In this document: positions 29,471 through 56,198 of the stretch, piece by piece
Position numbering within the stretch: the first letter of the stretch is position 1
How the letters are laid out: each line of letters begins with the position of its first letter
Assembly (NCBI GenBank): GCA_020831765.1
Contig: JAFIFY010000113.1
Coordinates: forward strand, 1-63,036
Reading direction: 5' to 3'
Length of the DNA: 63,036 nt
Source of the DNA: Phycisphaeraceae bacterium
GTDB lineage: Bacteria; Planctomycetota; Phycisphaerae; Phycisphaerales; Phycisphaeraceae
The notes under the pieces: generated by a model
What the model was told of the DNA's origin: nothing
Databases searched by the model: none
The model's input: the letters and a program-made list of their open reading frames with translations, nothing else
Program-made: the position numbers and the translations under genes

Positions 29471-29708
29471 GGAGCTCATCTTCCTCGGTTGCCAAGTAGC
29501 CAGAGTAAAAATCCTGCGTCCCAGCCGAACATCAGTACGGCTGAATATCAAAGAGACGCCTGTCCGACGACTGAGCGCTCACACTATTGCACGATTCAAT
29601 TCTGGGACTTCCAGGGGCTCCCCATGCGCTGGGCGCGCAGCGGGCCTAGCCAAATTGGGCCTCGGGGCGGCCAGAGCATGGAGAGCAGCTCGGAAAGCGC
29701 CATAGGGA

Positions 29709-34369: not shown

Positions 34370-37300
34370 ATGGCTGAACCTTCTTCTTTCCGATCGCCGG
34401 ATGACCTGTCCGACCGTGGTCGTCCTGAACTTGACCTGCCACGAGATGCCGACACGGCGGTTCTGGCTGCCGAAGCACTGGAATCGGTGTCGCCGGATGA
34501 GCGCATTCGGATGTTGGCCGCGCTGGAACAGCGGGCGGAAGGCGATCGGGTGGCCATCGGCTGGCTGGCCGTGGTCCGATCGAACTTTCCCGATCTGGCC
34601 GGACAGGGGCCGCAAGCGCCCAGTGTTCTGCGCATCGTCGGCCAGTTGATGGACCTGGGTTTCGCCCGCATCGATGCCAAGGCCATCACCGCAAGGCTGC
34701 TGGATCGCCCCACCACCATCGAAAGCTGGCAACACTGGCCATCCGTTTCCGAACGTGATGAATTACGCCTCCGCCTGGAGTTGATCGCCCGCTGGCCGAC
34801 CTTTGATGAACGGTTGGCGTCCTTCGTGCTGTTTTTCTTCCGCGCTTCGGTCTATGAGCTATACCGGCCCGCCGCGGCGGGGCTTGGCCGGCATGTCCAC
34901 AAAAGCCCCCAGATGACCGCGTACCTCAAGCGATACGCCGAGGGCCGAAGGATCGCCCTGGACAAGCCCCTGGCGCTGGAAGGCCAGCGGAGTCGGCGCA
35001 GAACTCTGCTGGCCATGGCCTTCAGCGCGTACCGGGAAGGGCGACAGAAAGACGAACCTGCAACCGACGACCGCATGATTCTCTGCCCCGATCCCCTGCC
35101 ATGGGAAACCGCCTCCGATGGGAGCCGCTCACTCCAATGGCCCCAGGATCCGCTGGACGCGGCCATCCAGGCTGACGCCCTGGCCATCGCGATCAACGCC
35201 GACCCGGCGAACCCACAACTGGCCGCGACCGCCGATGAACTGATCCGGACCTTCACGCAAGTGTGCCCGGTCGTCGCCCGCCGAACGCTGATTCAGCGGA
35301 TCGGCGCCTTGGCCTGCACTCGGGCCAACGTGTGCGAATCCCGCGACACGCGGAACATGATTACCGTCTGGCCGAAGCTCGCCTTGCGCCTGCTCAGGGC
35401 GATTCACAACCTGCCCCGCGGCTCTTTCGCCCGCCGCGCGGCCATTCTGATGCGACTCGATGAGGTCATACGCACCATCAGCCTGCTTCCGGATGCCACG
35501 GGCGCTCCGATCGCCCGCGCCCTGATCGGCGACTTCCCCGAGCCGGATCGCCGCTGGTTCCTGGGTCGGCTGCTGGTCTGGTCACTGCGCGAACACCAGA
35601 CGATCCTTCCGTGGATCGATGATCTGCGTTCGAGTTGTCCGTCCGAACCGTCGTCCGCATCCGCTTCACCGGGCGCGGCAACTGGGGCACGGGCTTTGAT
35701 CGATCGATACCAGCATGAGATCGTTGTATCGACACCCGACCGGGTGAATTTTGCCCCGGATCTGCCCGGAGCGCTTCAGGCCCGAAGACTCAGTGACCTC
35801 CTGGGTCACCTGGGTGGCGCGGCGGCCTGGCGGAGTCAGGATGAGTGGATGCAGTCGCTGGTGGCGTTCCATCTCCTGGATGAGACCCAGCACCTTGCGC
35901 TCCCCGCCGCGCAGGTTGAAGCGATCTTCGAACCCCTGGCCCTGAAGTCCGGCGATCGGCGAACCGGCTTATCGCCAACCGGCTCGGTACTGCTGGGCCT
36001 GTTGGAGTGCCACGGCGAGCAAGCGCTCGACCTGGTCGATTCCCGGCTGATCCACCGCATCGACAGCGAGGAGGCGCTTCTGGCCCTGGTGCCGACGGAA
36101 AAAGCCACCGATCTGCTTTCGCCGCTGGCCGATGCCATTGAACACCTGTTCCGCTGGCGGTTGCAGCGGGAATCGGGATTCTCGCTCACGGCGTTTCTCT
36201 ATCGACTGAATGTCCGCCGGCCACATGCGTCATTCTGGCAAGACCTTCTGGCCGTCTGCGCGGATCGGACCTACCTGGATGCCGACGGTCGGACCATACC
36301 TGTACTTCCCGTCCTTCAATGGCTTGCCGATGAAGCGAGCGCGGGACCACGCGAAGAATCGTTTGACGAAGCCCGTCGCTCAATGGCCGATTACAACAGC
36401 TTTCTCGATCACCTGGCGACACTAAGGGCCGCGTTGGATGCATTGCGGCATGATGGTGCGGCGATAAATCAGCGCCTTGAGGCATTTGTCGAACTGCTGG
36501 GCGGCGAGACCACGGACGGCCACTCGGGGCGATCAACAGTCCTGGGCCTGATTCAGCTTCTGGCGCGGCCGGATCAGCCGGTTCTGCGGAACGGCAGTCC
36601 CGCCTGGTCCAGTCAGCGGATGGGCGTATGGATTCATGAGCAACTGCCGGCGATGGAGAGGCCGGAGCTGAGTATCCCGTCGCTCATCCCGGACGATCTG
36701 ACCCACATTGATGATGCGCAGCACACCGCCGACCGCTGGCGATCGACCCTGGCGAAGATTGGCCTTTCGTTGGATCGGGTGCTGCCCCGTCATGACGCCC
36801 GGCTCATCAGGACAATCGCCGACCGGTTGATTGAAGACCTCGATCACTGGCGCCAATCCCTGCCGCGCATCCGCCTGGCGCTGATCTCGACCGACACCAG
36901 CCGTCATGATCAGGTCCATTCATGGGTGGCGGCACTCGATGAGATTTATCGCGCGTCCCCATCCATGCATCCGCTGCTGGTTTCCGCGTTCTGGCGCACC
37001 ATCGCGGCGTGGATCGAGGGCGGCATCGTTCGGCCGACTGAGCATGAGCCGGCCCCCAACGCCGATGAGGAAACCTGGAATCGGCGTATTGTCTTGCTGC
37101 GCTGGGCGGTTCAATGTTCGCTGATCGATCAGGGCGAAGCGGCCCCGGGTTCGAAGCCGCACGAATGGGACGATTCGATACGCCGACACTGGGGAGCGTG
37201 TCTCGCCGCCTACTGGCGGCAGTTGATCGATCGGGCCATGGACGAGCGTGCCGAATCCCGCGTGCTTACGCTACTCAAAGCGCCGGAGATGGTTCGCGTT

Positions 37301-37864
37301 CGGCGCGATCCGGAGTCCGCGGGAACCCTTCGCGAGGTGCGCGGCTGGTGCAGTGATCGCTACCTGCTGGCCGATGCCCACCGTGCGACGATCGACCTGG
37401 CTGCCACAATGGATCGACGTGGCTCATGGATGGCGACGATCGGCGGTTTCCTCGGGCGCTTCTCAACGATCTGGCTGTCGCTGATGATCGGCGCGATTCT
37501 GATGCTGGACTTCGGCGATCCCTGGGTCTTGATGGCCGAGGAAGGCGATCACTACGGCATTCTGATTACGTTTTTGATCGGACTAGGTGGCGCCTTCGGT
37601 TACCTGCTCTACGACCTCAAGAGCAAATCACGGGCACTGGCGGATTCCGCCGTGCAGGGCGCGGGCGGGCGGGCGCTGCTCCGTGTCAGTGCTTTTTTCG
37701 CCTTCTGCCTGGTCTACACCTTTGCCGTGACCGGCTTTCTCTGGTATCTGCTATCGGGAACCGATGCGGTGGTACATGGTCCGGGGGCGATCGGACATAT
37801 CGTGGTCTGGTCCGGGTTCGCGCTTTTCGCCGGCGTCTTCTTTGGACTGCTGGCCAAGCAGTGA
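34370..37864 (+). CDS. Large helical protein with C-terminal membrane helices, family unknown
   Basis: The 1164-residue protein is predicted to be almost entirely helical and soluble for the first 1020 residues, with many Leu/Ala/Arg-rich helices and no nucleotide-binding or protease motif that I can find. It ends with about four membrane helices (roughly 1028-1048, 1063-1083, 1105-1127 and 1140-1162), separated by a cytosolic stretch YDLKSKSRALADSAV. The large domain therefore probably lies in the cytoplasm, tethered to the membrane. A Ser/Ala-rich linker occurs near residue 425. No good ribosome site precedes ATG 34370. The histidine-rich protein gene starts 16 bases after its stop, so the two are likely co-expressed. 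Confidence 0.7.
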   Translation: MAEPSSFRSPDDLSDRGRPELDLPRDADTAVLAAEALESVSPDERIRMLAALEQRAEGDRVAIGWLAVVRSNFPDLAGQGPQAPSVLRIVGQLMDLGFARIDAKAITARLLDRPTTIESWQHWPSVSERDELRLRLELIARWPTFDERLASFVLFFFRASVYELYRPAAAGLGRHVHKSPQMTAYLKRYAEGRRIALDKPLALEGQRSRRRTLLAMAFSAYREGRQKDEPATDDRMILCPDPLPWETASDGSRSLQWPQDPLDAAIQADALAIAINADPANPQLAATADELIRTFTQVCPVVARRTLIQRIGALACTRANVCESRDTRNMITVWPKLALRLLRAIHNLPRGSFARRAAILMRLDEVIRTISLLPDATGAPIARALIGDFPEPDRRWFLGRLLVWSLREHQTILPWIDDLRSSCPSEPSSASASPGAATGARALIDRYQHEIVVSTPDRVNFAPDLPGALQARRLSDLLGHLGGAAAWRSQDEWMQSLVAFHLLDETQHLALPAAQVEAIFEPLALKSGDRRTGLSPTGSVLLGLLECHGEQALDLVDSRLIHRIDSEEALLALVPTEKATDLLSPLADAIEHLFRWRLQRESGFSLTAFLYRLNVRRPHASFWQDLLAVCADRTYLDADGRTIPVLPVLQWLADEASAGPREESFDEARRSMADYNSFLDHLATLRAALDALRHDGAAINQRLEAFVELLGGETTDGHSGRSTVLGLIQLLARPDQPVLRNGSPAWSSQRMGVWIHEQLPAMERPELSIPSLIPDDLTHIDDAQHTADRWRSTLAKIGLSLDRVLPRHDARLIRTIADRLIEDLDHWRQSLPRIRLALISTDTSRHDQVHSWVAALDEIYRASPSMHPLLVSAFWRTIAAWIEGGIVRPTEHEPAPNADEETWNRRIVLLRWAVQCSLIDQGEAAPGSKPHEWDDSIRRHWGACLAAYWRQLIDRAMDERAESRVLTLLKAPEMVRVRRDPESAGTLREVRGWCSDRYLLADAHRATIDLAATMDRRGSWMATIGGFLGRFSTIWLSLMIGAILMLDFGDPWVLMAEEGDHYGILITFLIGLGGAFGYLLYDLKSKSRALADSAVQGAGGRALLRVSAFFAFCLVYTFAVTGFLWYLLSGTDAVVHGPGAIGHIVVWSGFALFAGVFFGLLAKQ

Positions 37865-37880
37865 TGATCGGAGTCTGAAG

Positions 37881-39599
37881 ATGTTTCGTTTAAAATGGCT
37901 TCTGCTGATGGCCGCGATGGCGATGCCCGCGTGTCAGCCTCACCGGCATGACACCACGCATCGGAGCCATCATCACCCAGAGCATCAACACCATGAGCCG
38001 TGGTCCGATCGCAGCGCTCGCCATCCGCTGGTGGTCGGCCCCGATACCACCGTGATCGATCGGCCGCGCCTTCCCAGCGGCCTGATCGACTATGCGAGCG
38101 CCATCAATCAACATTTCGCTTCAGGAGTGGATCTGGCCGGCAACCCGGCGCTTGGTCTCTATTGCATGATCCCGGATGACAAGTGGCCGGATGAAAAGAG
38201 CCGCCTCAAGGCATTCAAGCAGATGGACCATCGTCCACCCGACCCGGAACATCGTCGGTTCGATTCGTACGATGCGTGGCTGGCCCGGCACGCCCCGGAG
38301 ATGCTCGCGCCGGACCGGATCGCCGCGACGCGCGATGCGTGGAACCGAGCGGGCCGGGAACCCTGGACCACCGAGGATCGGCCCATCATCGCGAAGTATC
38401 TCGAAGCACAGCGACGTGGCCTGGAAACGCTCCAAGCGCTCGACCCCGAAGTCACCGCGTTCATCCCACTGATCGCCGACCCCTCTCAGGTACTGCTGAC
38501 CAGGACCGAGCGATTCAGTGCGACTCGACATTTCCGTAATGTCGCGCAGGCATTGAGCCGTGAAATCGGACTGCTGATCGGCGAAGGACGACTGGACGAT
38601 GCGGCGGACACGATCGCCGCGCTTCGAGCGCTGGGCGTTCTGCTGGCGGATCGATCGCCACAGTTGATCGACCGGATCGTGGGCATGTCGATCGCCAACG
38701 ATGCGGCATCGTGGCTGCCCCCGCTACTCGAGCACCCGGACCTGACCGAAGCGGTCATCGGGCGACTTCGGTGGAGTGCGGCGGATGAACTTCGGCTGGT
38801 GCGGGTGGATGCCGCCATTCTGATCACCGAGCGTTACATCCTGCTCGATGCCATCCAACGCATGCACGGAGGACACGATGGCCTGACGCTGGAGATGCTG
38901 ACCGGATCGCACCAGGATCATGGACACCATCACGAACATGGATACCACCACGAGCACGAGCACTCCGGAGCGCAATCCAAGGTGGTTCTGCGGTACTTCG
39001 ATCGAAACCACGCCATGCGGGAGATCAATCGATATTTCGCCGAACTGGCGGAAATCCTGAAAGATGATGACCTGAACCAACGCCGGCGGAAGCTGGAAGA
39101 TCTGATGCGTGCCCGACTCGCGTTGTCTCGAGACCGATTGCGCGAATATCTGGGCGATGCCCCACTCGAGTCATCCAACCTTCAGCTCGTTCGATTCACC
39201 GATGAACTTCTTGAAACGCTGGAGCATGGCCGGCGGTCCGAGCGCATCAACGCCGAGGCCGCGCTGAACACCATCATCACCGAACTTTTCCTCGGCATCA
39301 CGCTGCCCACCTATCACGCAACCGCCCGGATCGCTCAGCAAACCCTTGCCCGGCAGCGAATGGCCAGGATCGCCACCGGGCTCGCGGCGTTTCACCTCCG
39401 GCATGGCCGTTTTCCCCAAGCTCTCGATGAACTGATGCCCGATATTCTGACCACCATGCCGATCGATCCGTTCCGTGATGATGACCGGGTGCTTGACTAC
39501 CGCTTGCGGGATGGGGTCGCCACCGTAAGCAGCATCGGCACTGATTCGGATGGTCGGCCGTTGAGCATTACCCTCGATCGGGGCGATCGCGGCGATTGA
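37881..39599 (+). CDS. Histidine-rich putative lipoprotein, distant relative of the 45-52 kb paralogs
   Basis: The protein has about 572 residues from ATG 37881. The N-terminus (MFRLKWLLLMAAMAMPAC) looks like a lipoprotein signal with the cysteine at residue 18, though the lipobox (MPAC) is imperfect. Immediately after it is a His-rich stretch (residues 20-42, HRHDTTHRSHHHPEHQHH). A second one (about 353-373, HQDHGHHHEHGYHHEHEH) lies within the chain. The C-terminus has ARIATGLAAFHLRHGRFPQ, then LDELMPDILTTMPIDPF, the pseudopilin-like motif also present in the 45-52 kb array (LVPxYLxxxPVNPYP). Metal binding (Zn, Ni or Cu) in the periplasm is inferred from the His clusters. It follows the 1164-residue gene by 16 bases. 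Confidence 0.65.
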   Translation: MFRLKWLLLMAAMAMPACQPHRHDTTHRSHHHPEHQHHEPWSDRSARHPLVVGPDTTVIDRPRLPSGLIDYASAINQHFASGVDLAGNPALGLYCMIPDDKWPDEKSRLKAFKQMDHRPPDPEHRRFDSYDAWLARHAPEMLAPDRIAATRDAWNRAGREPWTTEDRPIIAKYLEAQRRGLETLQALDPEVTAFIPLIADPSQVLLTRTERFSATRHFRNVAQALSREIGLLIGEGRLDDAADTIAALRALGVLLADRSPQLIDRIVGMSIANDAASWLPPLLEHPDLTEAVIGRLRWSAADELRLVRVDAAILITERYILLDAIQRMHGGHDGLTLEMLTGSHQDHGHHHEHGYHHEHEHSGAQSKVVLRYFDRNHAMREINRYFAELAEILKDDDLNQRRRKLEDLMRARLALSRDRLREYLGDAPLESSNLQLVRFTDELLETLEHGRRSERINAEAALNTIITELFLGITLPTYHATARIAQQTLARQRMARIATGLAAFHLRHGRFPQALDELMPDILTTMPIDPFRDDDRVLDYRLRDGVATVSSIGTDSDGRPLSITLDRGDRGD

Positions 39600-44919: not shown

Positions 44920-46392
44920 TCACTGGAGGATCAGGAAAAACTGGCCGCTCTCCGGTCGTAGCCTCCATCGTCCATGCTCGGTCTTCTCAACCAGCGGTTC
45001 ATCGGTGGAAGATCGCCGCGCTCGAAAGCCGAGCACATAGCCACCATCGAAGACCTGGTATTCCAGCGGCGTCGGGTACGGATTGACTGGAACCTCGGAT
45101 AGATAAGCCGGAACCAGATCATCGAGCGATTCAGGCGGACGGCCCTCGGCCCGCCGAAAACGTTCCACGGCCAAAGCGATCTTGGCCGTGCGATGGAGAC
45201 CCTCCGCACGACACGCGGTCACCAGGACATGGTCGGATGAGGGAATCACGATTCCAACAATCCGAAGAACCGTTCGGAGAAGGAACTCCGGCGGCAGGTC
45301 GATCGGCAGATGGTCCATCCACTCTTCGATCGGCTTGTCCAAAATATCCAGCGCCGCCCTGTTCCAACGCAACAAATAGGCACGGTTGAGACTTAAGTGA
45401 CCCGAAAACGCACTGAGAACAAGCACCGGGCCAGCGGCGGTTTCCCGAAGTCTGAGTATGGTGCGGTCCATCAGGACTGTTTCGCCGACCATCAGCAAAG
45501 TCGGATCAGGCACCGTCCGGGCTCGATGAATGATCGCCTCAAGCCTGTCAAGATGTTCATCAGTCGGTTCACCGAGATTGAGAATCGATTCAACCCCCGC
45601 AAGGGCTTGGGCATGAAGACTGATCCGGACCAACTGTCCGATGAGCATAAGCTCATCATCAAGCATCGCTGCATGACGAAACATCGCCTCCAGCAGATCG
45701 ATCGCCTCATCGACCCGCCCATCCAACAGAGCAACGTCCCGCTTCATGGAAAGCAGCGTTGCGCCTTGCCGCATCGGTCGGAGTTCGGGCAGTAGCAGTT
45801 CGACGCCCCCGACGTGATAATCGCGATCGGGAAGGTAATAATCAGCCTCGGTGGCTTCGAGCAACAGCTCGATCGCCTCTTCATGGACCGCCAGATATCG
45901 CCGTATGGCATCAATCACCTTATCGGGCCAGGGATCGCCCTGGCCAAGCTTGTCCAGTTGCACGGGTGAACGATCGGGTAACAGTTCGTGCATTGGCATC
46001 ATCGGGGGCGGATGACCATCGCCCTGACGCTCGTACTCTTCCCACAGGTGCGACCACCGGGGATGAGTACGAAATGCCTCCGGCACCGGCACACGCTCGG
46101 TCAACACTTCCTCCGGCTCCCTGAACAGCGCAAGCGCCCGCTCATAGATTTCCGCCGCGTTGATCCCGTCACGTGGTGCGCGATACCGAGCCAGAAGTTC
46201 ATCCACGTTCGTCGGGTGGCCCGACGCCGCGACCGAGCGCTGCGTACTGTGGAGCATCACCTCGGCCGTGATCCGGAAGCCCACCGCGACGACGATCAAC
46301 AGCGCGGCCAAGACCACAACCCCGATCACCAACCGACGGAAACGACGTTCCCGCTTCGTCGGCGCAGGCAATGGTGTGGTCGATTCGTTCAT
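44920..46392 (-). CDS. Array paralog 5 (subfamily A): single-pass membrane protein with pseudopilin-like C-terminus
   Basis: The protein has about 490 residues from ATG 46392 (AGGAG 8 bases upstream). It has a basic N-terminus, one membrane helix (about 22-46), then the hallmark ASGHPTNVDELLARYRAPRDG and NAAEIYERALALF. A helical middle with TPR-like features follows (VALLDGRVDEAIDLLEAMFRHA). The C-terminal motif is KIALAVERFRRAEGRPPES with LVPAYLSEVPVNPYPTP, like the end of GspG-type pseudopilin proteins. No enzyme motif is seen. The bulk of the protein is expected outside the cytoplasm. It is the last gene of a five-gene tandem array on this strand. Confidence 0.7.
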   Translation of the reverse strand: MNESTTPLPAPTKRERRFRRLVIGVVVLAALLIVVAVGFRITAEVMLHSTQRSVAASGHPTNVDELLARYRAPRDGINAAEIYERALALFREPEEVLTERVPVPEAFRTHPRWSHLWEEYERQGDGHPPPMMPMHELLPDRSPVQLDKLGQGDPWPDKVIDAIRRYLAVHEEAIELLLEATEADYYLPDRDYHVGGVELLLPELRPMRQGATLLSMKRDVALLDGRVDEAIDLLEAMFRHAAMLDDELMLIGQLVRISLHAQALAGVESILNLGEPTDEHLDRLEAIIHRARTVPDPTLLMVGETVLMDRTILRLRETAAGPVLVLSAFSGHLSLNRAYLLRWNRAALDILDKPIEEWMDHLPIDLPPEFLLRTVLRIVGIVIPSSDHVLVTACRAEGLHRTAKIALAVERFRRAEGRPPESLDDLVPAYLSEVPVNPYPTPLEYQVFDGGYVLGFRARRSSTDEPLVEKTEHGRWRLRPESGQFFLILQ

Positions 46393-46485
46393 TGCTTGTT
46401 CTCCTGTCATCCAAGGCGCGCTTTCGGCCTGATGCGCGGCCGGATCACAAAAAGATGGAGCCTCAGCGCACTCCAGCCTGAAGCA

Positions 46486-48006
46486 TCACTTCACGACGTG
46501 GAATCCAATACTGCCAGAAGGCCTTTGCCACGTTCCCGGGTCCGATGGTTCAACCCATGACTGGTTGATCCGCGTACCGCGGCGATGGAAGCCAACAAAG
46601 TAGCCTTCGTCCAGAGGATGGTATTCAAGCGGAGTGGGATAGGGATTCGCGGGAATCTCGGACAGGTAATTCGGCACCAGCTCATCCAGCGTTTCAGGCG
46701 TCCCACCTTCGACCAGGCGATAACGCTCAATCGCCAGTGCAACCAAAGCGGCCCGGCGAAAACCCTCCGCCCTGCACAGAGTAAACACCGATCTTTCAAG
46801 TAACGTCGGTGATTCAGCCTCACCCAGTTGATAGGCGAACCGCGCAAGAGCGCTTCGATGAACACCGAGCGGCGGATGCGCGGCCCAGGTGTCAATGGGC
46901 TCTTCGAGCAGATCGATCAACTTCATGGTTTCCCTGATCTCGTACGTTTGTCGAACCTTGGTTCGCCCCAGCCACCGCGTCAGGACATCGACACGGCTCA
47001 GGCTGCGATATTGGTCGAAGTGGGATGCCCAGTATTCCCCAAACACGATGTCACCGACAAACGCCATCGTCAGACCCCGCAGCACACTCATGCCCTCCAA
47101 CGATCGCTCGATCCTGTCCAGCCTCGCTTCACTCATCGAGCCCAAATTCAAGATGGCCTCAAGCTTCCCAAGCGCCATGGCATTGATGAATATGCGCACC
47201 AAGTGACCATAGTACTCGATTTCATCTTCGAGCATCGCCCCATGGCGGACCATTGCTTCCAGCAGGTCGATCGCCTCATCGGTCTGGCCATCCAGAAGAG
47301 CGAGGTCGAGCTTCGTCGACAACAGGCGGGCACCTCTCCTCATCGAACCGAGATACGCCATGACTGAGTCGTCCGCCATCGATCGATAATCCCGATCCGG
47401 GTAGCAGTAATCCGCCCGGCCGGCCTGCAGCAACAGATCGATCGCCTCTTCATGGGCGGCCAGATAGCGGCGTATCGCTTCGATGGACTCCTCCGGCCAG
47501 GGGGCACCCTTGCCGATCGGATCGAGCATGTGCGACCAATTCCCCTGATCGGGCAGCAGCTTCCATAAGGCGGTCATCTGAGGCTGGGCGTCGCTTTCCC
47601 GCGAACCTTCGAGACTCGGTGAATCCCGTGCGCCATCGTCCTGACGCTCATCTTCGATCCAGTGGTCCCACCCATCGCGGTGCTTACGAAATGCCTCGGG
47701 CAACGGAACCTGCTCAGGCATTACTTCCTCAGGCTTCCGAAACAGCGCGAACGCCCGTTCGTAAATCTCCGCCGCGTTGACACCATCCCTTGGCGCACGG
47801 TACCGCGCAAAGAGTTCATCCGCGTTCGTCGGATGCCCCGCCGCCGCCATCGACCTTAGGGCACGATGGTACATCCACTCGGCGTTGAGCCGAATCCCCA
47901 CGAACACCATGATCAATATCCCCGCCAGTACGGCAATACTTATCGCCAGCCTGCGCGGCCATCGGCGGGCCCGTTCGGTTCGATTTGAGGTTGTTGATTC
48001 GCTCAT
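46486..48006 (-). CDS. Array paralog 4 (subfamily A): single-pass membrane protein
   Basis: The protein has about 506 residues from ATG 48006 (TTGGAGA 8 bases upstream). It has the same architecture as its neighbours: RRWPRRLAISIAVLAGILIM membrane segment, AAGHPTNADELFARYRAPRDG, NAAEIYERAFALF, a helical region with LALLDGQTDEAIDLLEAMVRHG, then a C-terminal VALAIERYRLVEGGTPET and LVPNYLSEIPANPYPTP. An insertion of about 25 polar residues after the first conserved block (DDGARDSPSLEGSRESDA) distinguishes it. The 93-base gap to paralog 5 contains no terminator that I can see. Confidence 0.7.
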   Translation of the reverse strand: MSESTTSNRTERARRWPRRLAISIAVLAGILIMVFVGIRLNAEWMYHRALRSMAAAGHPTNADELFARYRAPRDGVNAAEIYERAFALFRKPEEVMPEQVPLPEAFRKHRDGWDHWIEDERQDDGARDSPSLEGSRESDAQPQMTALWKLLPDQGNWSHMLDPIGKGAPWPEESIEAIRRYLAAHEEAIDLLLQAGRADYCYPDRDYRSMADDSVMAYLGSMRRGARLLSTKLDLALLDGQTDEAIDLLEAMVRHGAMLEDEIEYYGHLVRIFINAMALGKLEAILNLGSMSEARLDRIERSLEGMSVLRGLTMAFVGDIVFGEYWASHFDQYRSLSRVDVLTRWLGRTKVRQTYEIRETMKLIDLLEEPIDTWAAHPPLGVHRSALARFAYQLGEAESPTLLERSVFTLCRAEGFRRAALVALAIERYRLVEGGTPETLDELVPNYLSEIPANPYPTPLEYHPLDEGYFVGFHRRGTRINQSWVEPSDPGTWQRPSGSIGFHVVK

Positions 48007-48065
48007 CGTGTGATTCTCCAATCGCATGTGGCCGGGAAAGGGCCAAGCTCCGGTCGCGGTCAAGT

Positions 48066-49562
48066 TTACCGGTCGCCGCGCAATTGATCCGGGCCCGACA
48101 CCAGAATGGACTGCACTTTGATCATGTCATGCGCCCTCCAGCGGCCGTGTTCGGTCCGTTCGATCAGCGGGTCGGTCGCGGCCATGCCGCGTCGCCGGAA
48201 ACCGACAATGTATCCATCCTCAAAGGTCTGATATTCCACCGGCGTCGGATAGGGATTCACAGGCAACGCGGCAAGATACCCGGGCACCAGGTCATCCAGT
48301 GAATCGGGCGGACGGCCCTCGGCCAGCCGGAATCGTTCCACGGCCAGCGCGGCCATCATGGATCGCCGCAATCCCTCGGCCCGGCACTGGTTGATCACAA
48401 AGTTCTCATACGCCGGGAGGAGTATCCGTGAGTAATGAAGGACATGCTGTTGAAGCATCTTCGGCGGCGGGGAGATCGGAACATGGTCGGTCCATTCCTC
48501 GATCGGCCTGTCCAGGATATCCAGAGCCTTCTTGTTCCACCGCATCAGATACGCCCTGTTGATGCTCAGGTGGCCGGACCAGGCGCTCATGGCGTGGGCG
48601 AACCCGCCATAGTGCTCCCGCAGCATGAGCAAGGCCTGATCGCTCAGCACCATTTCACCCACAATCAGCAACCTGGGATCGGGCACGGCGCTGCTCTGGC
48701 CAACCATCGACTCGAGCCGCGCAAGCCTGGCCTCGTTCATCGGGCCCAAGTTAAGAATTGACTCGATCTTGCCCATCGCCACCGCGTAATTGGCGGTCCG
48801 GGTCAACTGCCCGATCAGGGTAAGCTCATCATCGAGCATCGCCGCATGGCGAAGCATCGCCTCCAGAAGGTCGATCGCCTCATCGACCCGCCCATCCAAA
48901 AGGGCAAGGTCCAGCTTCATGGAAAGCAGCGTTGCGATTCGCCGCATTGGCAGAAGGTCGGGCGTGAACAGGAGCACGGCCCCGAGGTGATAATCGCGCG
49001 GCGGATGGTAGTAGTCCGCCTCGACCGCCTCCAGCACCAGAGAGATCGCTTCATCGTGAACCGCCAAATAATGGCGCATGGCCTGGATGGACAATTCCGG
49101 CCAGGGATCGCCATGCCCAAGACGATCCAGTCCGCCCAATTCCATGTAAGGCAGGAAAGCGAGCAGCGGAACTTCCGCGGTCCGGTCGCCATCACCCGGT
49201 CGGGTGCCGTTCATCGCATGATGCGACCAGCGCGGATGATCACGAAGCGCCTCGGGCAGCGGTACCCGCTCCCAGATCATGTCCCTGGGCTCCTGGATCA
49301 GGATAAAGGCGGCCGCATAGGTCTCCACCGCGTTGACCCCATCCCGCGGTGCCCTGTACCGAGCCAGAAGCTCACCCACATTCGTTGGATGCCCCGCCGT
49401 CGCGACCGAGCGCATTGCGCTGCCAAGCATCCCGTCCGCCGTCAGGCGAAAGCCCGCGAATCCGATGATCGAGACCACGATCAGGACCACCACGCCGATT
49501 CCCAGCCTGCGCGGCCAGCGACTCAGCCGATCTTGACCTGTAGTGGGAGTCCGGTCGCTCAT
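48066..49562 (-). CDS. Array paralog 3 (subfamily A): single-pass membrane protein
   Basis: The protein has about 498 residues from ATG 49562, with AGGAGG 7 bases upstream. The membrane segment is RRLGIGVVVLIVVSIIGFAG, then ATAGHPTNVGELLARYRAPRDG and the repeat-like LALLDGRVDEAIDLLEAMLRHA. The C-terminus is MAALAVERFRLAEGRPPDS with LVPGYLAALPVNPYPTP. It is very close to paralog 5 in the central repeat and C-terminus, which indicates fairly recent duplication. The first 36 bases around the start are nearly the same as those of paralog 2, although the proteins belong to different subfamilies. Confidence 0.72.
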   Translation of the reverse strand: MSDRTPTTGQDRLSRWPRRLGIGVVVLIVVSIIGFAGFRLTADGMLGSAMRSVATAGHPTNVGELLARYRAPRDGVNAVETYAAAFILIQEPRDMIWERVPLPEALRDHPRWSHHAMNGTRPGDGDRTAEVPLLAFLPYMELGGLDRLGHGDPWPELSIQAMRHYLAVHDEAISLVLEAVEADYYHPPRDYHLGAVLLFTPDLLPMRRIATLLSMKLDLALLDGRVDEAIDLLEAMLRHAAMLDDELTLIGQLTRTANYAVAMGKIESILNLGPMNEARLARLESMVGQSSAVPDPRLLIVGEMVLSDQALLMLREHYGGFAHAMSAWSGHLSINRAYLMRWNKKALDILDRPIEEWTDHVPISPPPKMLQQHVLHYSRILLPAYENFVINQCRAEGLRRSMMAALAVERFRLAEGRPPDSLDDLVPGYLAALPVNPYPTPVEYQTFEDGYIVGFRRRGMAATDPLIERTEHGRWRAHDMIKVQSILVSGPDQLRGDR

Positions 49563-49725
49563 CAGTGATCCTCCTGTCCGGTCCACATTGGCCCTTTGGG
49601 CGCTTCATCGACTCGCTCCCGGATGGATCGACACAAGGTCAGTACCATTCAGTCTGCTCGTCATCCGAGTGGTGATGCGGTTGAAAATCGGCGCCGGCCT
49701 CAGTTGGAGCAGGCCCTTGGGTAAG

Positions 49726-50937
49726 TCACTGGGGCTCAGAGAGAAGGGTAAACATCAGATACTCACAACTCAAACCAAGATAGCGTATTACACCTCGGTA
49801 CGATTGAGCGTAGAGCGGATTGATCTCATCCGCTTGTGCCTTACGGCGCGATAACGTTTTCTCGAAATCATGTAGACGTAAGAGTTCATCCGGCCACACA
49901 TGCGGCCATGCTATCCTCTGCCGATCGGCGACCATCCGCCTCAGGAGAGCGGCCCGGTTTCGGGGCGTACTGCCCAGTAAATGCATCAGCCGCCCGCGTG
50001 ATCCAGTAACCTCCTTGAAGGTCGCCGGCAAATCGTCCAAGTGCTCCAAGTAAGCGATGATGTTGCTCTTGTACCAATGACTCTGCGGCCAACGATCGTT
50101 CAGAAACGCTTCGAAGCGACGCAGCCTTGCCTCCGTGGATGTCATCTGAGTACGCCACTTCATGGCCAGCGAAACGGCCATGTCGCAGATTCGCAACGCC
50201 GTCGAGCTGAACTCAATGGACAGATCATCGGCCAAGGCATCACCCAGCCGAAAGAGCGACTCGAACAGTTCAATGCCCTGATCCACCTTGCCTTCGGTCA
50301 TGGCCACATCAACCGCCATTGTCATGAGATACCCCGCGGTCAATGCCCGCCGCAAGCGATTGACTGAAGCTTCGCCTCCGGGCCCATCGAGGCGGCCGAT
50401 GCCGCTGAAGTCGGCCTGCCCGGCCTGGATCAGCAACTCGATCGCTTCCTCGTGCGCATCAATGTATCGTCGCATGGCATCAACGACGGCTGGTGGCGTT
50501 TCGGAGGGCGTGATCGCAAAGGACCCCACAGCGCCCAGTACCGGAAGCAACTGATCCTCCCGCACCTGTCCGCTCTCGGGGCGAACCGCATCAGAGGCCG
50601 GCCTCAGATACTTCCGCTCAGGGTCCGGATCGGATATCCAGTCGGTCAAGACCTCTCGTGGATCGCGCAAGAGCTCGAACGCCCGCTCATAGAGCACTGT
50701 GCCATCCCGGCCCGACCGCTCGACCGCGTACATCGCCATGGCCTCTTCAAGGTCCAAAGGCAATCCGGCTTCCCGGACCTCCTGCTTGGCACGATGCAGC
50801 AGATACTCAGCCGATAGACGAATCCCAACGAACGGGACGATCAATAGCGCCCCAGCCAGGACGACGACAACAATCTCCGGCCGAGGAAGCCCACGGTGCA
50901 GTGGCTTTTTCGGCGAAATCACAGTCCGGTCGCTCAT
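49726..50937 (-). CDS. Array paralog 2 (subfamily B), lacking the C-terminal motif
   Basis: The protein has about 403 residues from ATG 50937 with AGGAGG upstream. The membrane segment is EIVVVVLAGALLIVPFVGI, then subfamily B hallmark EAGLPLDLEEAMAMYAVERS with GRDGTVLYERAFELL. The middle has VDVAMTEGKVDQGIELFESLFRLG, the equivalent of the LALLDGRVDEAIDLLEAM block. It ends at SCEYLMFTLLSEPQ, just where the others begin the helix leading to the pseudopilin-like motif, so about 70 residues are missing. The 160-base spacer downstream holds no clear remnant of them. It may be a truncated, still expressed variant. Confidence 0.65.
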   Translation of the reverse strand: MSDRTVISPKKPLHRGLPRPEIVVVVLAGALLIVPFVGIRLSAEYLLHRAKQEVREAGLPLDLEEAMAMYAVERSGRDGTVLYERAFELLRDPREVLTDWISDPDPERKYLRPASDAVRPESGQVREDQLLPVLGAVGSFAITPSETPPAVVDAMRRYIDAHEEAIELLIQAGQADFSGIGRLDGPGGEASVNRLRRALTAGYLMTMAVDVAMTEGKVDQGIELFESLFRLGDALADDLSIEFSSTALRICDMAVSLAMKWRTQMTSTEARLRRFEAFLNDRWPQSHWYKSNIIAYLEHLDDLPATFKEVTGSRGRLMHLLGSTPRNRAALLRRMVADRQRIAWPHVWPDELLRLHDFEKTLSRRKAQADEINPLYAQSYRGVIRYLGLSCEYLMFTLLSEPQ

Positions 50938-50957
50938 CAATCGTCCTCCTGTCCGGT

Positions 50958-52370
50958 TCAATTCGGCCTCTTCGGGGATCCATCGGTTCGCACCCGGATG
51001 CCTACTCGGACTGGCGCCGGATCGGGCGTCCGGAAATCCATCTCAATGGGAACCACCCGTAACCGATTGCGTTCATCGCGCTCGGGCCGCCCAAACCCCG
51101 GATCATCCTCCTTGGCCATACGCTTTCGCGAGAAGCCGATCCAGTAGCCGTCGGTCAGATGCTCCAATTCGAACTCATCACCGATCGAGTTAACCGGAAT
51201 CTCGGCCAGGATGTCCGGCGACAGGGAAGCCAGTTGCTCAGGAACCCGGCCTTCGCGCAGCCGGAAGCGTTCGATGGCCACGGCAATCAGCGCGGCCCGC
51301 CGATGAGCCTCACATCTGGCGGCGCTCGCGAAAGATTGCGTGGATGCCGGGCTGAGCAGATAAGCTTCGGTCATCCGATCCACCAGCCCTACTTCAAACG
51401 GCGGCGGCCCCTCGACCCGCATCCACTGCTCGATCGGTCGCTCCGCTCGCTGGTGCGCATCGATCAGTCGCCTGAGGATTTCGGCTTGCTGGCGGGCAGT
51501 CGCCCCTCGCCAGTTCATCAGCCGTCCGCGCGTGCCGGCCAGCTCGACCAGGTTCGCCGGCAGGTGTTCACGGGTCTCCAGATGAGCGGTGACCATGCTG
51601 TTGCGGAATTGGGTTACCGGATCGATCTCCCGCAGCCCGGCCTCGATGCGGTCCAGCCGCGCTTCGGTGATCTCGACCACGCTGAGCACATCGCCGAGCC
51701 GCTCGAACGCCATCGAATAAATGCTGCACCGCACCATGTACAACACGAGTGATGGGTCATCACCCAGGGCATCGCCAAGTCGAACGAGAGACCGAGACAG
51801 TTCAAGAGCCCGATCTTCCTCACCGTCGATCAGGGCCACGTCCAAGGCCAGCCGCAGGAGGTGAGCAGCGCTACGAACCTGCCTCAGACGATCACTCGAA
51901 GCATCCTCCTGGGCCCCAATGTGGCGATCGATGTTGCCGAAGTCGGCCTGCCCGGCCTTGATCAGCAACTCGATCGCTTCCTCGCTCGCATCGATGAACT
52001 GACGTGCTTCATGAATGATGGGCTCGGGCACATCGGAATCCGCGATCGAACCGAACATCCCACTTCCCAGACTCGGAAGCAACTGAACCTCGTCGGGTCC
52101 GCGCACGAGTTTGAATGCTTTCTCATAAAGCTCCGTGCCATCCCGGCCCGACCGCTCGATCGCGAACAACACCCTGGCCTCATCAAGGTTCACAGGCAAT
52201 CCCGCCGCGCGAACCGCCTGCCCGGCGAGATACAGATCAAGCTCAGCCCATAGCCGAACCCCCGCGAACGTGATGATCAACACCCCGACCAGGACCACAA
52301 CACCGATCCCGAGCCTGCGCGGCCAGCGGCGATTCTTTTGATCTGTCGATGATTCTGTCCGCTGATCCAT
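50958..52370 (-). CDS. Array paralog 1 (subfamily B): single-pass membrane protein
   Basis: The 470-residue protein starts at ATG 52370 (GGAGG 5 bases upstream). It has RRWPRRLGIGVVVLVGVLII as membrane segment, nearly the same as paralog 3, then RAAGLPVNLDEARVLFAIERS and GRDGTELYEKAFKLV. The helical centre has LDVALIDGEEDRALELSRSLV. The C-terminus retains LIAVAIERFRLREGRVPEQ and LSPDILAEIPVN, but the final block continues into a basic/acidic tail (RPERDERNRLRVV). It is the first gene of the array, and its stop lies 20 bases from the next start, suggesting one transcript through the array. Confidence 0.7.
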   Translation of the reverse strand: MDQRTESSTDQKNRRWPRRLGIGVVVLVGVLIITFAGVRLWAELDLYLAGQAVRAAGLPVNLDEARVLFAIERSGRDGTELYEKAFKLVRGPDEVQLLPSLGSGMFGSIADSDVPEPIIHEARQFIDASEEAIELLIKAGQADFGNIDRHIGAQEDASSDRLRQVRSAAHLLRLALDVALIDGEEDRALELSRSLVRLGDALGDDPSLVLYMVRCSIYSMAFERLGDVLSVVEITEARLDRIEAGLREIDPVTQFRNSMVTAHLETREHLPANLVELAGTRGRLMNWRGATARQQAEILRRLIDAHQRAERPIEQWMRVEGPPPFEVGLVDRMTEAYLLSPASTQSFASAARCEAHRRAALIAVAIERFRLREGRVPEQLASLSPDILAEIPVNSIGDEFELEHLTDGYWIGFSRKRMAKEDDPGFGRPERDERNRLRVVPIEMDFRTPDPAPVRVGIRVRTDGSPKRPN

Positions 52371-52546: not shown

Positions 52547-55090
52547 TCAGCTCGTTTTAAGCACGAGTTCCTGCCGGCCGGGTTTGAGCGGATGAGTTCG
52601 GCCGCGCCAGATGAACTGGCCCGTCACCGTCTCGGGCAACTCGACCCGGGCATGCCAGTGGTTGTCCACTTGCTCGAGGTGGGATCGAATCACGCCGCGC
52701 GGGTGCGGCATGCTGGCTTCAAGTTTGCGCAGCTTCCACGGCTGGGGTTGAATGCGGACGCCGGCGAAACCCGGCCCCTCCGGCCGTATCCCCATGATGC
52801 TCGCGGCAAAGTGATAGAGCGGATGGGCGGACCATGCATGGCAGTCCGAGCGGCTGGGTTCTGGCTTCTCCGGGGCGGTGCGAAAGCCGCGTTCGGTCAG
52901 CGTCAACCATGACTCCAGCCTCGCAAAGATAAGGTCCATCCGGCCCAGTTTCGCCAGCACATCAAGAACGTAGTGGCTGAAATAGATGGTCGCCGGGTCA
53001 AGGTTTTTGGATTCAACCAGCGTTGCGGCCACCAGTCGCTGTCGATCCACATCCAGTCGGCCGCCAAGAATGGCCATGCTGTGGCTGTGTTCGGAGGCGA
53101 ATCGGCGCTCTTGATCATCGCACAATTGGCCGGATGCCTCATCCCAGAAGCATGACCACGCAACCTCGGTCAACTCGTCGGCACAGCGCAACCATCGCGC
53201 TGCCGGCTCCGGCTCGCCCACATACCGCTCCAGTTGCCTGGCATACTCAAGCGCCAGGATCAATTGCCAGTGAATCGGCCCGCTGATGCCGTGTTCGCCA
53301 TCGGGCGGGACACCATGCTTCCAGTGCGGCCGATCGACCCAGTCCATGAAATTCCAGCCGGTCGGCGCTTCGATCAGACCATCACCATTCCGGCACGCCA
53401 GAAACGCATCGAGGATCGCCCGCACACCGCGCATATGCCGGCGGACAAAAGCCGCATCATCGCGAAGATGGGCGTAATCATGAAGCATGCCGATCCACCA
53501 GAGACTGAACGGTGGGATCACCTGCCGCCGATTCGATGGATAACGCGACTGGCAAAAGCCTTCGGGCAAGCGCGAGAAGTCAAACAACTCGATCGCCTTG
53601 CGGACCAGGGCATCATCACCAGTCGAGATCAGCGTCACAAGCGCCTCAAGCCGCGTATCGCCGATGTACATCAGTTGCTCGTAATACGGGCAGTCCATGT
53701 ACGTCTCATGGGCGCACATCTGAAGGGTGCGGAACATGATCCGCGAAGCCGGTTCGAAGCGCGGCTCATCGCAGGTAAAGCCAAAGTCCCGCTCAAGCGG
53801 ATATCGCGTCTCTTCCAGGCTGATTCGCTCAATGGTCAATGGTTCGTCGGCGGCCAGCACCACAATGCGCGCGTATCGTCCCGAAGACCACCACGGCGTG
53901 AAGAGCACCCTGTTTCCATCCCCGGCGATCAGGACATCCTCATCCGCCCGGTAATACCGGCCGTCGATCTTGTCGCGATCGCCCTTTTCGCGGGATGGAT
54001 GCTCCTGGCAATAGAGCGCTTCGGCCATGGAGAAGCGAACTTCCGCCCCCCCGCCGCCTCGGACGCCGATGGCCGGATAGACGCAGGCATAGTTATCCAG
54101 GTCGATCAGCACACATCGCCCTTGTCTGGCGGGGATGGTGACCGGTTGCCCGTGATCGAGCATCGCCTGCCATCGCCGCGCTTCGGCCTCATCATGGAGC
54201 GTCGGGTCGATCGGCTCGTGCGTTTGGCCCGTTTCGTCGATCGATCGCGCATGGCGAACCCGTCCGGGATCGAACCCAGCGGAAACCGGCGCGGGAAGCC
54301 GGGCGGGCGTGAGCAGTGGCATCTCCATGCCCTCGCGGTTCGTGTCCGAGAACGCCTGCTTCCCACGCGCGGCCGGTCGCCATGCCAGCGCTTCCAACCC
54401 CTGATCGGACCAGTCAAGCAGACGCGCATCGAATCGCACCCGCGCCCCGACGCCCCAGCCGATCTTCTGTTCACCCGGCTCGATCCCCGGCACGATCGTC
54501 GCCTCCCATGCGGCGTGGCCGGTCGCGATGCGCTCAAGCCAAGGCTCTTCGGCCGCCAGCAGAAAGCCGGGCGACATGCTCATCTGCGCAAAGGGCACCG
54601 ACGAGCCCCACGACCAGACCATGGCCAGAATCTCGTGAGGGCCGGCCTCGAGCGCTCCCTGGTAGCTCTCAAAATGCCAGTGGGCCGGCTCGCCTCGCTC
54701 CGGCCCGCGCCCCACCGGTCGGCCGTCCACCCAGAGCCGATAGCGCTCATCGGCCGAAACATGAAACCGGACGGTCTCGCTTTCCCGAAGGCCGAATCTC
54801 AATCGACAGAGCCAGGTGATCGGTTGGCCGCGTATTCCGCCCGTCCGTGAGGTGGGATGATCCGGTCGCTGGTTGCCGGTGTCCGGCCGGTCGAGGTGAG
54901 CATTCGGGGATGGCGGCATCAACCAGTAACACGGCCAGCGGCCCTGCTCAACCCAGCGATCGACGGCTTCCTGCTGGGCGAACGGACGCGCCTCGAGCAG
55001 CACGCGCTGGATGGGGGACGGTTCGGCGACCGCCTCGACGGCGGGAGGGAAGCTGGCCTTCGTCGGCTCGCGGGATGGTGCACTGGACAT
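52547..55090 (-). CDS. GH78-type alpha-L-rhamnosidase-like protein
   Basis: The 847-residue protein has N-terminal beta-sandwich modules (VRFHVSADERYRLWVDGRPVG; GPHEILAMVWSWG) and a helical catalytic domain with ETYMDCPYYEQLMYIGDTRLEAL, the GH78-like counterpart of the DCPQRDE motif. Later parts are WNFMDWVD, SMAILGG and SDCHAWSAHPLYHF. A C-terminal beta domain follows (GVRIQPQPWKLRKLEASMPHPRG). It is probably an alpha-rhamnosidase or related exo-hydrolase. No signal peptide is visible. It lies upstream of the paralog array on the same strand, with 176 bases between its stop and the array start, and is divergent from the DUF502 gene. Confidence 0.8.
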   Translation of the reverse strand: MSSAPSREPTKASFPPAVEAVAEPSPIQRVLLEARPFAQQEAVDRWVEQGRWPCYWLMPPSPNAHLDRPDTGNQRPDHPTSRTGGIRGQPITWLCRLRFGLRESETVRFHVSADERYRLWVDGRPVGRGPERGEPAHWHFESYQGALEAGPHEILAMVWSWGSSVPFAQMSMSPGFLLAAEEPWLERIATGHAAWEATIVPGIEPGEQKIGWGVGARVRFDARLLDWSDQGLEALAWRPAARGKQAFSDTNREGMEMPLLTPARLPAPVSAGFDPGRVRHARSIDETGQTHEPIDPTLHDEAEARRWQAMLDHGQPVTIPARQGRCVLIDLDNYACVYPAIGVRGGGGAEVRFSMAEALYCQEHPSREKGDRDKIDGRYYRADEDVLIAGDGNRVLFTPWWSSGRYARIVVLAADEPLTIERISLEETRYPLERDFGFTCDEPRFEPASRIMFRTLQMCAHETYMDCPYYEQLMYIGDTRLEALVTLISTGDDALVRKAIELFDFSRLPEGFCQSRYPSNRRQVIPPFSLWWIGMLHDYAHLRDDAAFVRRHMRGVRAILDAFLACRNGDGLIEAPTGWNFMDWVDRPHWKHGVPPDGEHGISGPIHWQLILALEYARQLERYVGEPEPAARWLRCADELTEVAWSCFWDEASGQLCDDQERRFASEHSHSMAILGGRLDVDRQRLVAATLVESKNLDPATIYFSHYVLDVLAKLGRMDLIFARLESWLTLTERGFRTAPEKPEPSRSDCHAWSAHPLYHFAASIMGIRPEGPGFAGVRIQPQPWKLRKLEASMPHPRGVIRSHLEQVDNHWHARVELPETVTGQFIWRGRTHPLKPGRQELVLKTS

Positions 55091-55298
55091 CCATCCATGG
55101 TCTTGGGGAAGGTCGGATCGGTCAATCGAGGCCCGACCGCGGCGTCCGCGAGTCTGGAAAAAACTCCGTATGGTCGGTCATCGGGTTATTGACGATTTCC
55201 GCCGCCAGCCGTATTCTGCCAAGCAAGCGCTTACGCCGTTCCCGATCCGGATCGGCAAGAGGAGAAGTGGCCGATTCGGCATCGGCAAGGCACACCTT

Positions 55299-56198
55299 AT
55301 GTCCGAGGCCACACCCCAGACCCGCAACAGCCCGGGAGGCGCGAAGAAATTTTTTCTGCGCGGCCTGGCGATCGTGCTTCCCACCGTCCTGACCATCTGG
55401 CTTGGGGTGGTGGTGTACCAGTTCGTTCAGGATCGAATCGCCCAGCCGATCAATTCCGGCATCCGGGAGTTGGTGATCCGCTTTACCGATTATCCATCGG
55501 TGGATGATTTCGACATGGCCCGCGAGGAGGTGTTCTTCGCCACGGAGCGAGAGCTGACCAGCCAACTTGATCGCGCCGGCCGGGATTACTACCGGCAGCT
55601 TCAAACCAGGGAACAAAAGGAAGCCTTCCTTCGAGAGTGGGTCCGTCGCGCCCGGCTGGAGCGCGAGTGGAACCAGTTTCACTGGCTGTTCGACCTTGCC
55701 GGGCTGGTGGTGGCGATCATCGGCATCTATATCATCGGCGTGGTGGTCGGAAGCTGGATCGGCAGGCGCCTGTACAACCGGGGCGAAGCACTGATCAGCC
55801 GCATTCCGCTGATCCGCAAGGTCTACCCCTCGGTCAAGCAGGTCACCGATTTCTTTGTGGGCGAGAACGCCGCCACCCAGGCGACCTTCAGCCGGGTCGT
55901 GGCCGTGCAGTACCCCCGTAAGGGCATCTGGTCGGTCGGCCTGGTGACCGGCGGAACCATGGATCGCATTCAAAAGGCGATGGAAGTCCCTTGCCTGACT
56001 GTATTTATTCCCAGTTCGCCGACCCCGTTCACCGGTTATGTCATCACCGTCAGAAAAGATGAAGTGGTGGACCTGCCCATCTCGCTCGAAGAAGCGCTTA
56101 AGTTCGCCGTCAGCCTGGGTGTGCTGGTTCCGCCGCAGCAGCAATCCCCCGATGACGATGAGACGGCCAAGTTGGGGCTACCCATGGATAAGATGTAG
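55299..56198 (+). CDS. DUF502 family membrane protein
   Basis: The protein has about 299 residues and two membrane helices (about residues 22-44 and 127-150). The DUF502 hallmark KFFLRGLAIVLPTVLTIWLG begins at residue 17, with FDLAGLVVAIIGIYIIGVVVGSWIGRR in two parts and IPLIRKVYPSVKQVTDFF later, then VGLVTGGTMD and VFIPSSPTPFTGYV. Members are envelope proteins of unknown role. An insert of about 70 charged residues between the helices (EEVFFATERELTSQLDRAG and following) is longer than usual and may be a coiled coil. ATG 55299 was chosen as the start of family similarity. Confidence 0.85.
   Translation: MSEATPQTRNSPGGAKKFFLRGLAIVLPTVLTIWLGVVVYQFVQDRIAQPINSGIRELVIRFTDYPSVDDFDMAREEVFFATERELTSQLDRAGRDYYRQLQTREQKEAFLREWVRRARLEREWNQFHWLFDLAGLVVAIIGIYIIGVVVGSWIGRRLYNRGEALISRIPLIRKVYPSVKQVTDFFVGENAATQATFSRVVAVQYPRKGIWSVGLVTGGTMDRIQKAMEVPCLTVFIPSSPTPFTGYVITVRKDEVVDLPISLEEALKFAVSLGVLVPPQQQSPDDDETAKLGLPMDKM

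What the first reader, a model, noticed from the sequence alone, without database searches (positions are those of the whole stretch)
44920..52370. Five-gene tandem array of paralogous membrane proteins with pseudopilin-like C-termini
Five consecutive genes share one architecture: basic N-terminus, one membrane helix, a conserved first block, a helical repeat (LALLDGRVDEAIDLLEAM type), and a C-terminal LVPxYLxxxPVNPYP motif. They fall into two subfamilies, distinguished by GHPTN...RYRAPRDG versus AGLPxxLxEA...ERSGRDGT. Local amplification with divergence suggests selection for variety, as in surface or substrate-binding proteins. I know of no described function for this architecture.
Basis: partly seen in the sequence, partly recalled or inferred. 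Interest (0 to 1): 0.75.

Follow-up and report, generated by a model that had tools for sequence, protein, structure and literature searches.

The report
Tandem pilin-headed membrane protein array
Five neighbouring genes are local copies of one membrane-anchored protein from a large, unnamed bacterial family whose tail folds like the building block of a secretion filament, and relatives sit beside envelope-regulation genes, so they may be parts of an unstudied cell-envelope sensing system.

Summary
The array is real. Five minus-strand genes (g1 50958-52370 to g5 44920-46410) are homologous along their length (26-59% identity) and form one clade (100/98): local duplicates in two subfamilies.

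They belong to a family without a Pfam or NCBIfam model, found in 125 of 294 sampled genomes of the phylum and in Verrucomicrobiota: one membrane helix, an all-helical core, and a C-terminal head with the fold of GspG, the type II secretion major pseudopilin. In a relative's model the head matches two Vibrio GspG structures (Z 10.8 and 10.5, rmsd 2.0). A calcium-loop-like motif is in 83 of 99 relatives but 0 of 5 window copies; a prepilin-peptidase-like site is in 1 of 99, so these are probably not pilins.

Of 99 relatives, 41 follow a sigma-factor gene and 38 also a small membrane protein; two are fused to a multi-pass membrane protein beside an ABC ATPase. Best guess: an envelope sensor or partner subunit, amplified here without its regulator. 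Function is inferred, not shown.

The parts
50958..52370 (-). g1: first gene of the array, AGLP...ERSGRDGT subfamily, 470 aa; divergent C-terminal motif (LSPDILAEIPVNSIG), no calcium-loop-like motif
49726..50961 (-). g2: AGLP subfamily, 411 aa as an ORF (likely ATG at 50937 after AGGAGG); pilin-like head lost, degenerate copy
   Evidence: GC3 falls to 0.46 in its last block; tail DNA aligns with g1 C-terminal DNA
49583..49725 (-). remnant of a g1-like C-terminus between g2 and g3, reaching to the g3 leader
   Evidence: (family D6, 79% over 78 nt)
48066..49586 (-). g3: GHPTN...RYRAPRDG subfamily, 506 aa as an ORF (likely ATG at 49562 after AGGAGG)
46486..48063 (-). g4: GHPTN subfamily, 525 aa as an ORF (likely start MSES at 48006, as profile match begins there)
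44920..46410 (-). g5: GHPTN subfamily, 496 aa; structure model: membrane helix 19-62, helical core, long helix 383-422, strands 449-495
37764..39599 (+). distant sixth family member in the window, separate from the array; retains MPIDPF...SSIGTDSDG; no strong hydrophobic segment at the threshold used
52547..55090 (-). GH78-like protein (Bac_rhamnosid6H) on the same strand 176 bp upstream of g1; possible co-transcription, untested

Best explanation
The array is a lineage-specific tandem amplification (five copies, one decaying) of a widespread but unmodelled family of single-pass inner-membrane proteins. Each has a short basic cytoplasmic end, one membrane helix, and outside the membrane a roughly 300-residue all-helical core that ends in a GspG-type pseudopilin head. 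Shown by computation: homology, monophyly, family spread, fold of the head in a relative, lack of a prepilin peptidase site, and gene neighbourhoods. Inferred: the protein is an extracytoplasmic sensor or partner subunit of envelope-response modules. In Verrucomicrobiota it is the third gene after a sigma factor and a small membrane protein (a possible anti-sigma factor); in some other lineages it is joined to a multi-pass membrane protein next to an ABC ATPase. The head would serve as a docking or calcium-responsive domain, not as a filament subunit. In this genome the array has no such regulator next to it and has lost the calcium-loop-like motif, so the copies probably keep the binding or scaffold role alone, perhaps transcribed with the GH78 gene just upstream.
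For: Homology and clade. Spread: 47 of 61 near genomes at E 1e-3 with the array profile, 125 of 294 in the phylum at 1e-10 with at most 5 candidates scored per genome, 79 loci in named genomes. Head = GspG: relative's model pLDDT 92.2, VIA-align 3gn9 Z 10.8 and 4lw9 Z 10.5, rmsd 2.0 over 88 residues; 27 of 46 members match TIGR01710 (best E 5.6e-5) and 23 of 46 match T2SSG (best 2.5e-4) at E up to 1; a C-terminal profile finds only three PDB sequences at E up to 1, two named general secretion pathway protein G and one named type II secretion protein. Context: of 99 family ORFs, 41 have a sigma-factor gene within 1.5 kb upstream on the same strand and 38 also the small protein; downstream it is 6 and 6, all six standing before the next family gene of the same locus. 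Sigma-70 region 2 and 4 confirmed in a representative. L144 and L145: 13-14 hydrophobic segments, the family domain as C-terminal half, an ABC ATPase upstream, a GntR gene in L144.
Against: The window has no sigma factor, small membrane protein or ABC-2 gene near the array: profiles of the three found only two ABC ORFs at 14346-18255. Of 21 family ORFs in Planctomycetota-titled loci none has the sigma or small-protein neighbour, and only 1 of 33 in the 20 unnamed related loci has a sigma hit, so the sensor reading is carried over from other phyla. The small protein matches no Pfam model; its anti-sigma role is a guess. The window protein's own head is less GspG-like: best pilin rows are C. difficile PilA1 at Z 5.4-5.9, below the level the tool calls trustworthy, and window proteins hit neither T2SSG nor GspG models. 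Foldseek found nothing significant for either model (best E 0.31 and 0.27).
Confidence: 0.4

Rival explanations
1. They are unusual pseudopilin or pilus subunits: the membrane helix and the head act as in GspG, with a helical domain inserted between them, and the copies enter a type II secretion or type IV pilus fibre.
For: GspG fold of the head in a relative; GspG and T2SSG profile matches. g2 has a sequence in its first 60 residues that fits a loose prepilin-site pattern.
Against: Only 1 of 99 relatives fits that pattern, and it is the permease fusion L145, away from the family domain; among the window five only the degenerate g2 fits it, at a place where its neighbours do not. The head lies about 300 residues from the membrane helix. 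Two relatives are fused to a 13-14 segment membrane protein. The genome has three separate T2SSG hits above the cut-off on other contigs.
Confidence: 0.12
2. Glycan-degradation partner: the array is the anchored binding or scaffold part of a rhamnoside-use locus with the flanking GH78 enzymes.
For: Two GH78-type proteins flank the array, one on the same strand 176 bp upstream; no terminator excess between them (7 sites found, 6.9 expected in shuffles).
Against: No glycoside hydrolase cluster recurred among the neighbour clusters listed for the 96 loci compared, though only the top clusters were printed and few were identified by Pfam. The family's other settings are regulatory or transport genes.
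Confidence: 0.15
3. Diversifying surface or substrate-binding proteins under selection for variety.
For: Tandem amplification with two subfamilies; the third part of the core is the least alike between copies (g5-g4 20 of 92, g3-g4 17 of 92).
Against: All 10 pairwise dN/dS values are 0.28-0.64; one copy is decaying; deep divergence of old duplicates explains the pattern as well.
Confidence: 0.12
4. Neutral local duplication of a protein of dispensable role, on the way to loss.
For: g2 is degenerate, g5 and g4 have lower GC3 towards their ends, array not found in relatives.
Against: Four of five copies are intact and constrained; duplicates that cluster by locus recur in all four other arrays placed in the tree.
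Confidence: 0.2

Closest known systems
GspG, major pseudopilin of type II secretion (Pfam PF08334 T2SSG, TIGR01710; solved 3gn9, 4lw9, 2kep)
   Same: Fold of the C-terminal head in a relative (Z 10.8 and 10.5); weak sequence profile matches; calcium-loop-like motif in 83 of 99 relatives.
   Different: No prepilin peptidase site in 98 of 99 relatives; head separated from the membrane helix by a helical core; window copies lack the loop motif (0 of 5).
Type IV pilin PilA1 of Clostridioides difficile (6t8s, 4pe2, 4tsm, 4ogm)
   Same: Weak structural match to the g5 C-terminus (Z 5.4-5.9, residues about 393-496).
   Different: Z under 8 may mean only a common arrangement; no pilin N-terminus in g5.
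ECF sigma factor with membrane anti-sigma factor
   Same: Relatives in Verrucomicrobiota and Lentisphaerae lie behind a sigma-factor gene and a small protein with one moderately hydrophobic segment. Passages of two reviews on ECF classification and class I anti-sigma factors were seen (PMC8103513, PMC7406223).
   Different: Neither passage set mentions this third gene; the small protein has no Pfam match; absent in the window.
GntR-regulated ABC-2 type exporters (recalled kind)
   Same: L144 has GntR, ABC ATPase and a 13-segment membrane protein fused to the family domain; L145 has the ATPase and the fusion.
   Different: The fused membrane part matched no Pfam model, so 'ABC-2 permease' is inferred from its neighbours and segment count; seen in two loci only.

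Membership tests
GspG / T2SSG major pseudopilin | C-terminal globular head of GspG fold | tested here: met
   For the relative L089:9267-10634: Z 10.8 and 10.5, rmsd 2.0, 88 residues. For window g5 only PilA1 at Z 5.4-5.9, inconclusive by itself.
GspG / T2SSG major pseudopilin | Match to the curated sequence model | tested here: inconclusive
   Window proteins: none. Relatives: 23 of 46 T2SSG (best 2.5e-4), 27 of 46 TIGR01710 (best 5.6e-5) at E up to 1; cut-offs per member not shown.
GspG / T2SSG major pseudopilin | N-terminal prepilin peptidase site followed by the hydrophobic helix | tested here: not met
   Loose pattern found in 1 of 99 relatives and in 1 of 5 window proteins, the degenerate g2.
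GspG / T2SSG major pseudopilin | Head directly follows the N-terminal helix | tested here: not met
   About 300 residues of helical core between them in both models.
GspG / T2SSG major pseudopilin | Calcium site in the C-terminal loop (its need in GspG: passage of PMC10574481) | tested here: not met
   By a motif of my own: 0 of 5 window copies, 83 of 99 relatives. Binding itself not tested.
ECF sigma / anti-sigma module | Adjacent sigma-factor gene | tested here: not met
   None in the window by the sigma profile; present for 41 of 99 relatives.
ECF sigma / anti-sigma module | Small membrane protein binds and holds the sigma factor | not testable with these tools
   No Pfam match; needs a binding test.
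TPR repeat proteins | TPR repeats above the curated cut-off | tested here: not met
   Best TPR_14 E 0.05, 14.8 bits against a cut-off of 23.5.

The most novel reading that the evidence does not exclude
A three-part envelope signalling system of the Planctomycetota-Verrucomicrobiota group not found described here: an ECF sigma factor, a small membrane protein and a membrane-anchored sensor whose sensing head is a recycled, calcium-responsive pseudopilin domain. The same head has been plugged into ABC transporters elsewhere and has repeatedly been amplified in tandem, here after cutting loose from both its regulator and calcium.
Probability: 0.3. Interest if true: 0.72.

Novelty: new variant of a known kind. 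Interest (0 to 1): 0.5.

Why it matters
A fold known from secretion filaments appears as the head of a large family of non-pilin membrane proteins without a Pfam or NCBIfam model, in phyla known for unusual cell envelopes. The gene order in Verrucomicrobiota gives a direct, testable function for proteins now counted as hypothetical, and tandem arrays such as this one would become readable. Cultured relatives exist, for example Chthoniobacter flavus Ellin428 with four copies in a row (L102).

Tried and rejected
Pfam and NCBIfam gave no family for the five proteins and none above E 0.001 that survives inspection for ten long relatives (weak STN, DUF5080 and HAAS matches only). PDB sequence search with the array profile: none. 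Foldseek against the PDB: 0 matches at E 0.001 for either model. In VIA-align the helical core matched mostly designed helical repeats (Z up to 9.9), which I treat as uninformative; several lie within 1 Z of the GspG rows, but cover another part. GspG was not among the 50 rows shown for g5.

Enzyme and TPR readings were dropped for lack of support. The first genome-contig scan with the array alignment found no relative among 146 stretches. The locus set is not a fair sample: it was drawn by one C-terminal peptide pattern, the best 80 of 109 kept. Four of its 79 loci (L078, L103, L089, L093) duplicate unnamed-genome loci and were left out of the neighbour clustering (75 kept) but not out of the 99 ORFs. 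The 99 include four pieces of what looks like one broken gene (L121). The 20 unnamed loci were partly chosen because they showed clusters, so array frequency is quoted only from the 75: 13 hold two or more family ORFs, L121 among them.

Literature: searches were searched; only listings and starts of abstracts were seen, apart from passages of PMC8103513, PMC7406223 and PMC10574481. PMC7286433 is not held. A library of open papers only; absence there is weak evidence.

An earlier count of prepilin-like sites (3) mixed in other window ORFs; one search replaces it. My note gave the lower end of dN/dS wrongly; stands (0.28).
Full report
Observation. The window carries five consecutive minus-strand ORFs at 52370 down to 44920, here g1 to g5 in reading order. 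Neighbours overlap by 4 bases (g1-g2) or are 139, 2 and 75 bases apart as ORFs (coordinates), which is operon-like; promoter- and terminator-like sites in the region are at chance level (2 against 2.6, and 7 against 6.9). All five have one strong hydrophobic segment after a basic stretch. Identity among the ten pairs is 26-59%; g5 and g1 align over most of their length at E 6e-48. In a tree of 42 family members the five form one clade (100/98), split into g1+g2 (100/100) and g3+g4+g5 (100/99). Third codon positions vary most in all ten pairs and dN/dS is 0.28-0.64, with dS often near saturation. They are therefore real, constrained, lineage-specific duplicates.

Corrections. The LVPxYLxxxPxNPYP motif is in g3, g4 and g5; g1 has a divergent form; g2 stops before it. 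The end of g2 and the spacer behind it align with the g1 C-terminal coding DNA with gaps (score 95 against at most 46 in 200 shuffles), and GC3 falls to 0.46 in the last block of g2. So g2 has lost its head by deletion and frameshift. A comparable case is the fourth copy of the Chthoniobacter flavus array (L102:13509-14882), which reads out of the head after GSYP.

Family. Iterated profile search in 61 near genomes found matches in 47 at E 1e-3; the family has no Pfam or NCBIfam model that reaches its cut-off on the window proteins. In the order, 21 of 400 genomes, the own one included, match the array profile at 1e-15, with three candidates scored per genome, and the best other match is 1.2e-36, so no near copy of this array was found. 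With the broader alignment, 125 of 294 genomes of the phylum match at 1e-10, five candidates scored per genome. A scan of named genomes with one C-terminal pattern gave 109 relatives, of which 79 loci were kept, titled Verrucomicrobiota for the most part, then Planctomycetota, Lentisphaerae, Hydrogenedentota, Omnitrophota and a few others; 99 ORFs there match the family profile, many of them over nearly its whole length. Of 75 such loci, 13 hold two or more family ORFs, one of these (L121) probably a single broken gene. In the tree the copies of each of four other arrays (L102, L079, L100, L089) are each other's nearest kin. Tandem amplification is thus a habit of the family.

Structure. AlphaFold models are confident: g5 with pLDDT 89.0 and pTM 0.87, and a relative from Planctomycetales bacterium ZRK34 (L089:9267-10634) with pLDDT 92.2 and pTM 0.89. 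Both show a long N-terminal helix that holds the membrane segment, a helical core, and a C-terminal long helix followed by strands. For the relative, the two top rows of the structural comparison are the major pseudopilins of Vibrio vulnificus and V. cholerae (Z 10.8 and 10.5, rmsd 2.0, 88 residues, model 356-452). Designed helical proteins follow at Z 9.9 and below and fit the core; Foldseek itself reported nothing at E under 0.27. For g5 only C. difficile PilA1 rows appear (Z 5.4-5.9) and GspG is not among the rows shown. Sequence agrees: 27 of 46 members match the GspG model and 23 of 46 T2SSG at E up to 1 (best 5.6e-5 and 2.5e-4), and a profile of 28 C-termini finds three PDB sequences at E up to 1, two named general secretion pathway protein G and one type II secretion protein (best 5.3e-4).

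What it is not. A loose prepilin-site pattern is present in 1 of 99 relatives, in the permease part of a fusion, and in one of the window five, the degenerate g2. The head is about 300 residues away from the membrane helix. Calcium at the head loop is needed by GspG of Vibrio cholerae (passage of PMC10574481); a motif of mine for that loop is in 83 of 99 relatives and in 0 of the 5 window proteins. The genome has three T2SSG hits above the cut-off on other contigs.

Setting. Of the 99 ORFs, 41 have a sigma-factor gene within 1.5 kb upstream on the same strand and 38 of these also a small protein (about 146 residues, one moderately hydrophobic segment) usually directly in front; downstream the counts are 6 and 6, each time standing before the next family gene. 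The sigma gene is confirmed by Pfam in a representative. In L114 the whole three-gene set stands three times in a row. None of the 21 ORFs in Planctomycetota-titled loci has either neighbour, and in 20 unnamed related loci it is 1 of 33 for sigma and 0 for the small protein. There other settings occur: L044, L046 and L053 lie near MoxR, DUF58, BatA and ABC genes, L133 behind an ABC ATPase, and in L144 and L145 the family domain is the C-terminal half of a protein with 13-14 hydrophobic segments behind an ABC ATPase. In the window none of the three neighbour types is near the array; instead two GH78-type genes flank it, one 176 bases upstream on the same strand.

Reading. The common thread of sigma factor, small membrane protein and ABC module is response to the state of the envelope. 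I take the family as an outward-facing sensor or partner subunit whose head is a recycled pseudopilin domain, and the window array as copies freed from the regulator and from calcium. The anatomy is well supported; the role is an inference, put at 0.4, with pilus subunit, glycan partner, variety selection and near-neutral drift as rivals.

Novelty. Nine searches of an open-paper library gave no description of this family or gene order (listings only, with passages of three papers). I rate it a new variant of a known kind: a known domain in an unrecorded architecture.

Noticed in passing
L114:4993-12590: Sigma factor, small membrane protein and family gene stand three times in a row in a Limisphaerales genome, a tandem repeat of a whole regulatory operon.
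   Followed up: partly
L144:1955-6519 and L145:6283-9333: Family domain fused behind a 13-14 segment membrane protein, next to an ABC ATPase (and a GntR gene in L144); the membrane part has no Pfam match.
   Followed up: partly
window:37764-39599 (+): Distant family member on its own, following a 1164-residue ORF (34370-37864) without Pfam match; also matches elsewhere in the genome at contigs C93, C52 and C16.
   Followed up: partly
L102:13509-14882: Fourth copy of the Chthoniobacter flavus array reads out of the pilin head after GSYP, much as g2 has lost its head; head loss in one copy of an array may recur.
   Followed up: partly
L044, L046, L053: Recurrent order of family gene with MoxR, DUF58, BatA, ABC genes and an unidentified 600-870 residue protein in related Phycisphaerae.
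   Followed up: partly
L121:6540-9279: One family gene split into four ORFs, with unread bases in one piece; probably a broken gene or poor assembly.
   Followed up: no
window:4025-9215 and 27050-29551: Three PQQ or BamB-like and one pectate-lyase-like ORFs, and a DUF502 protein at 55011-56198.
   Followed up: no
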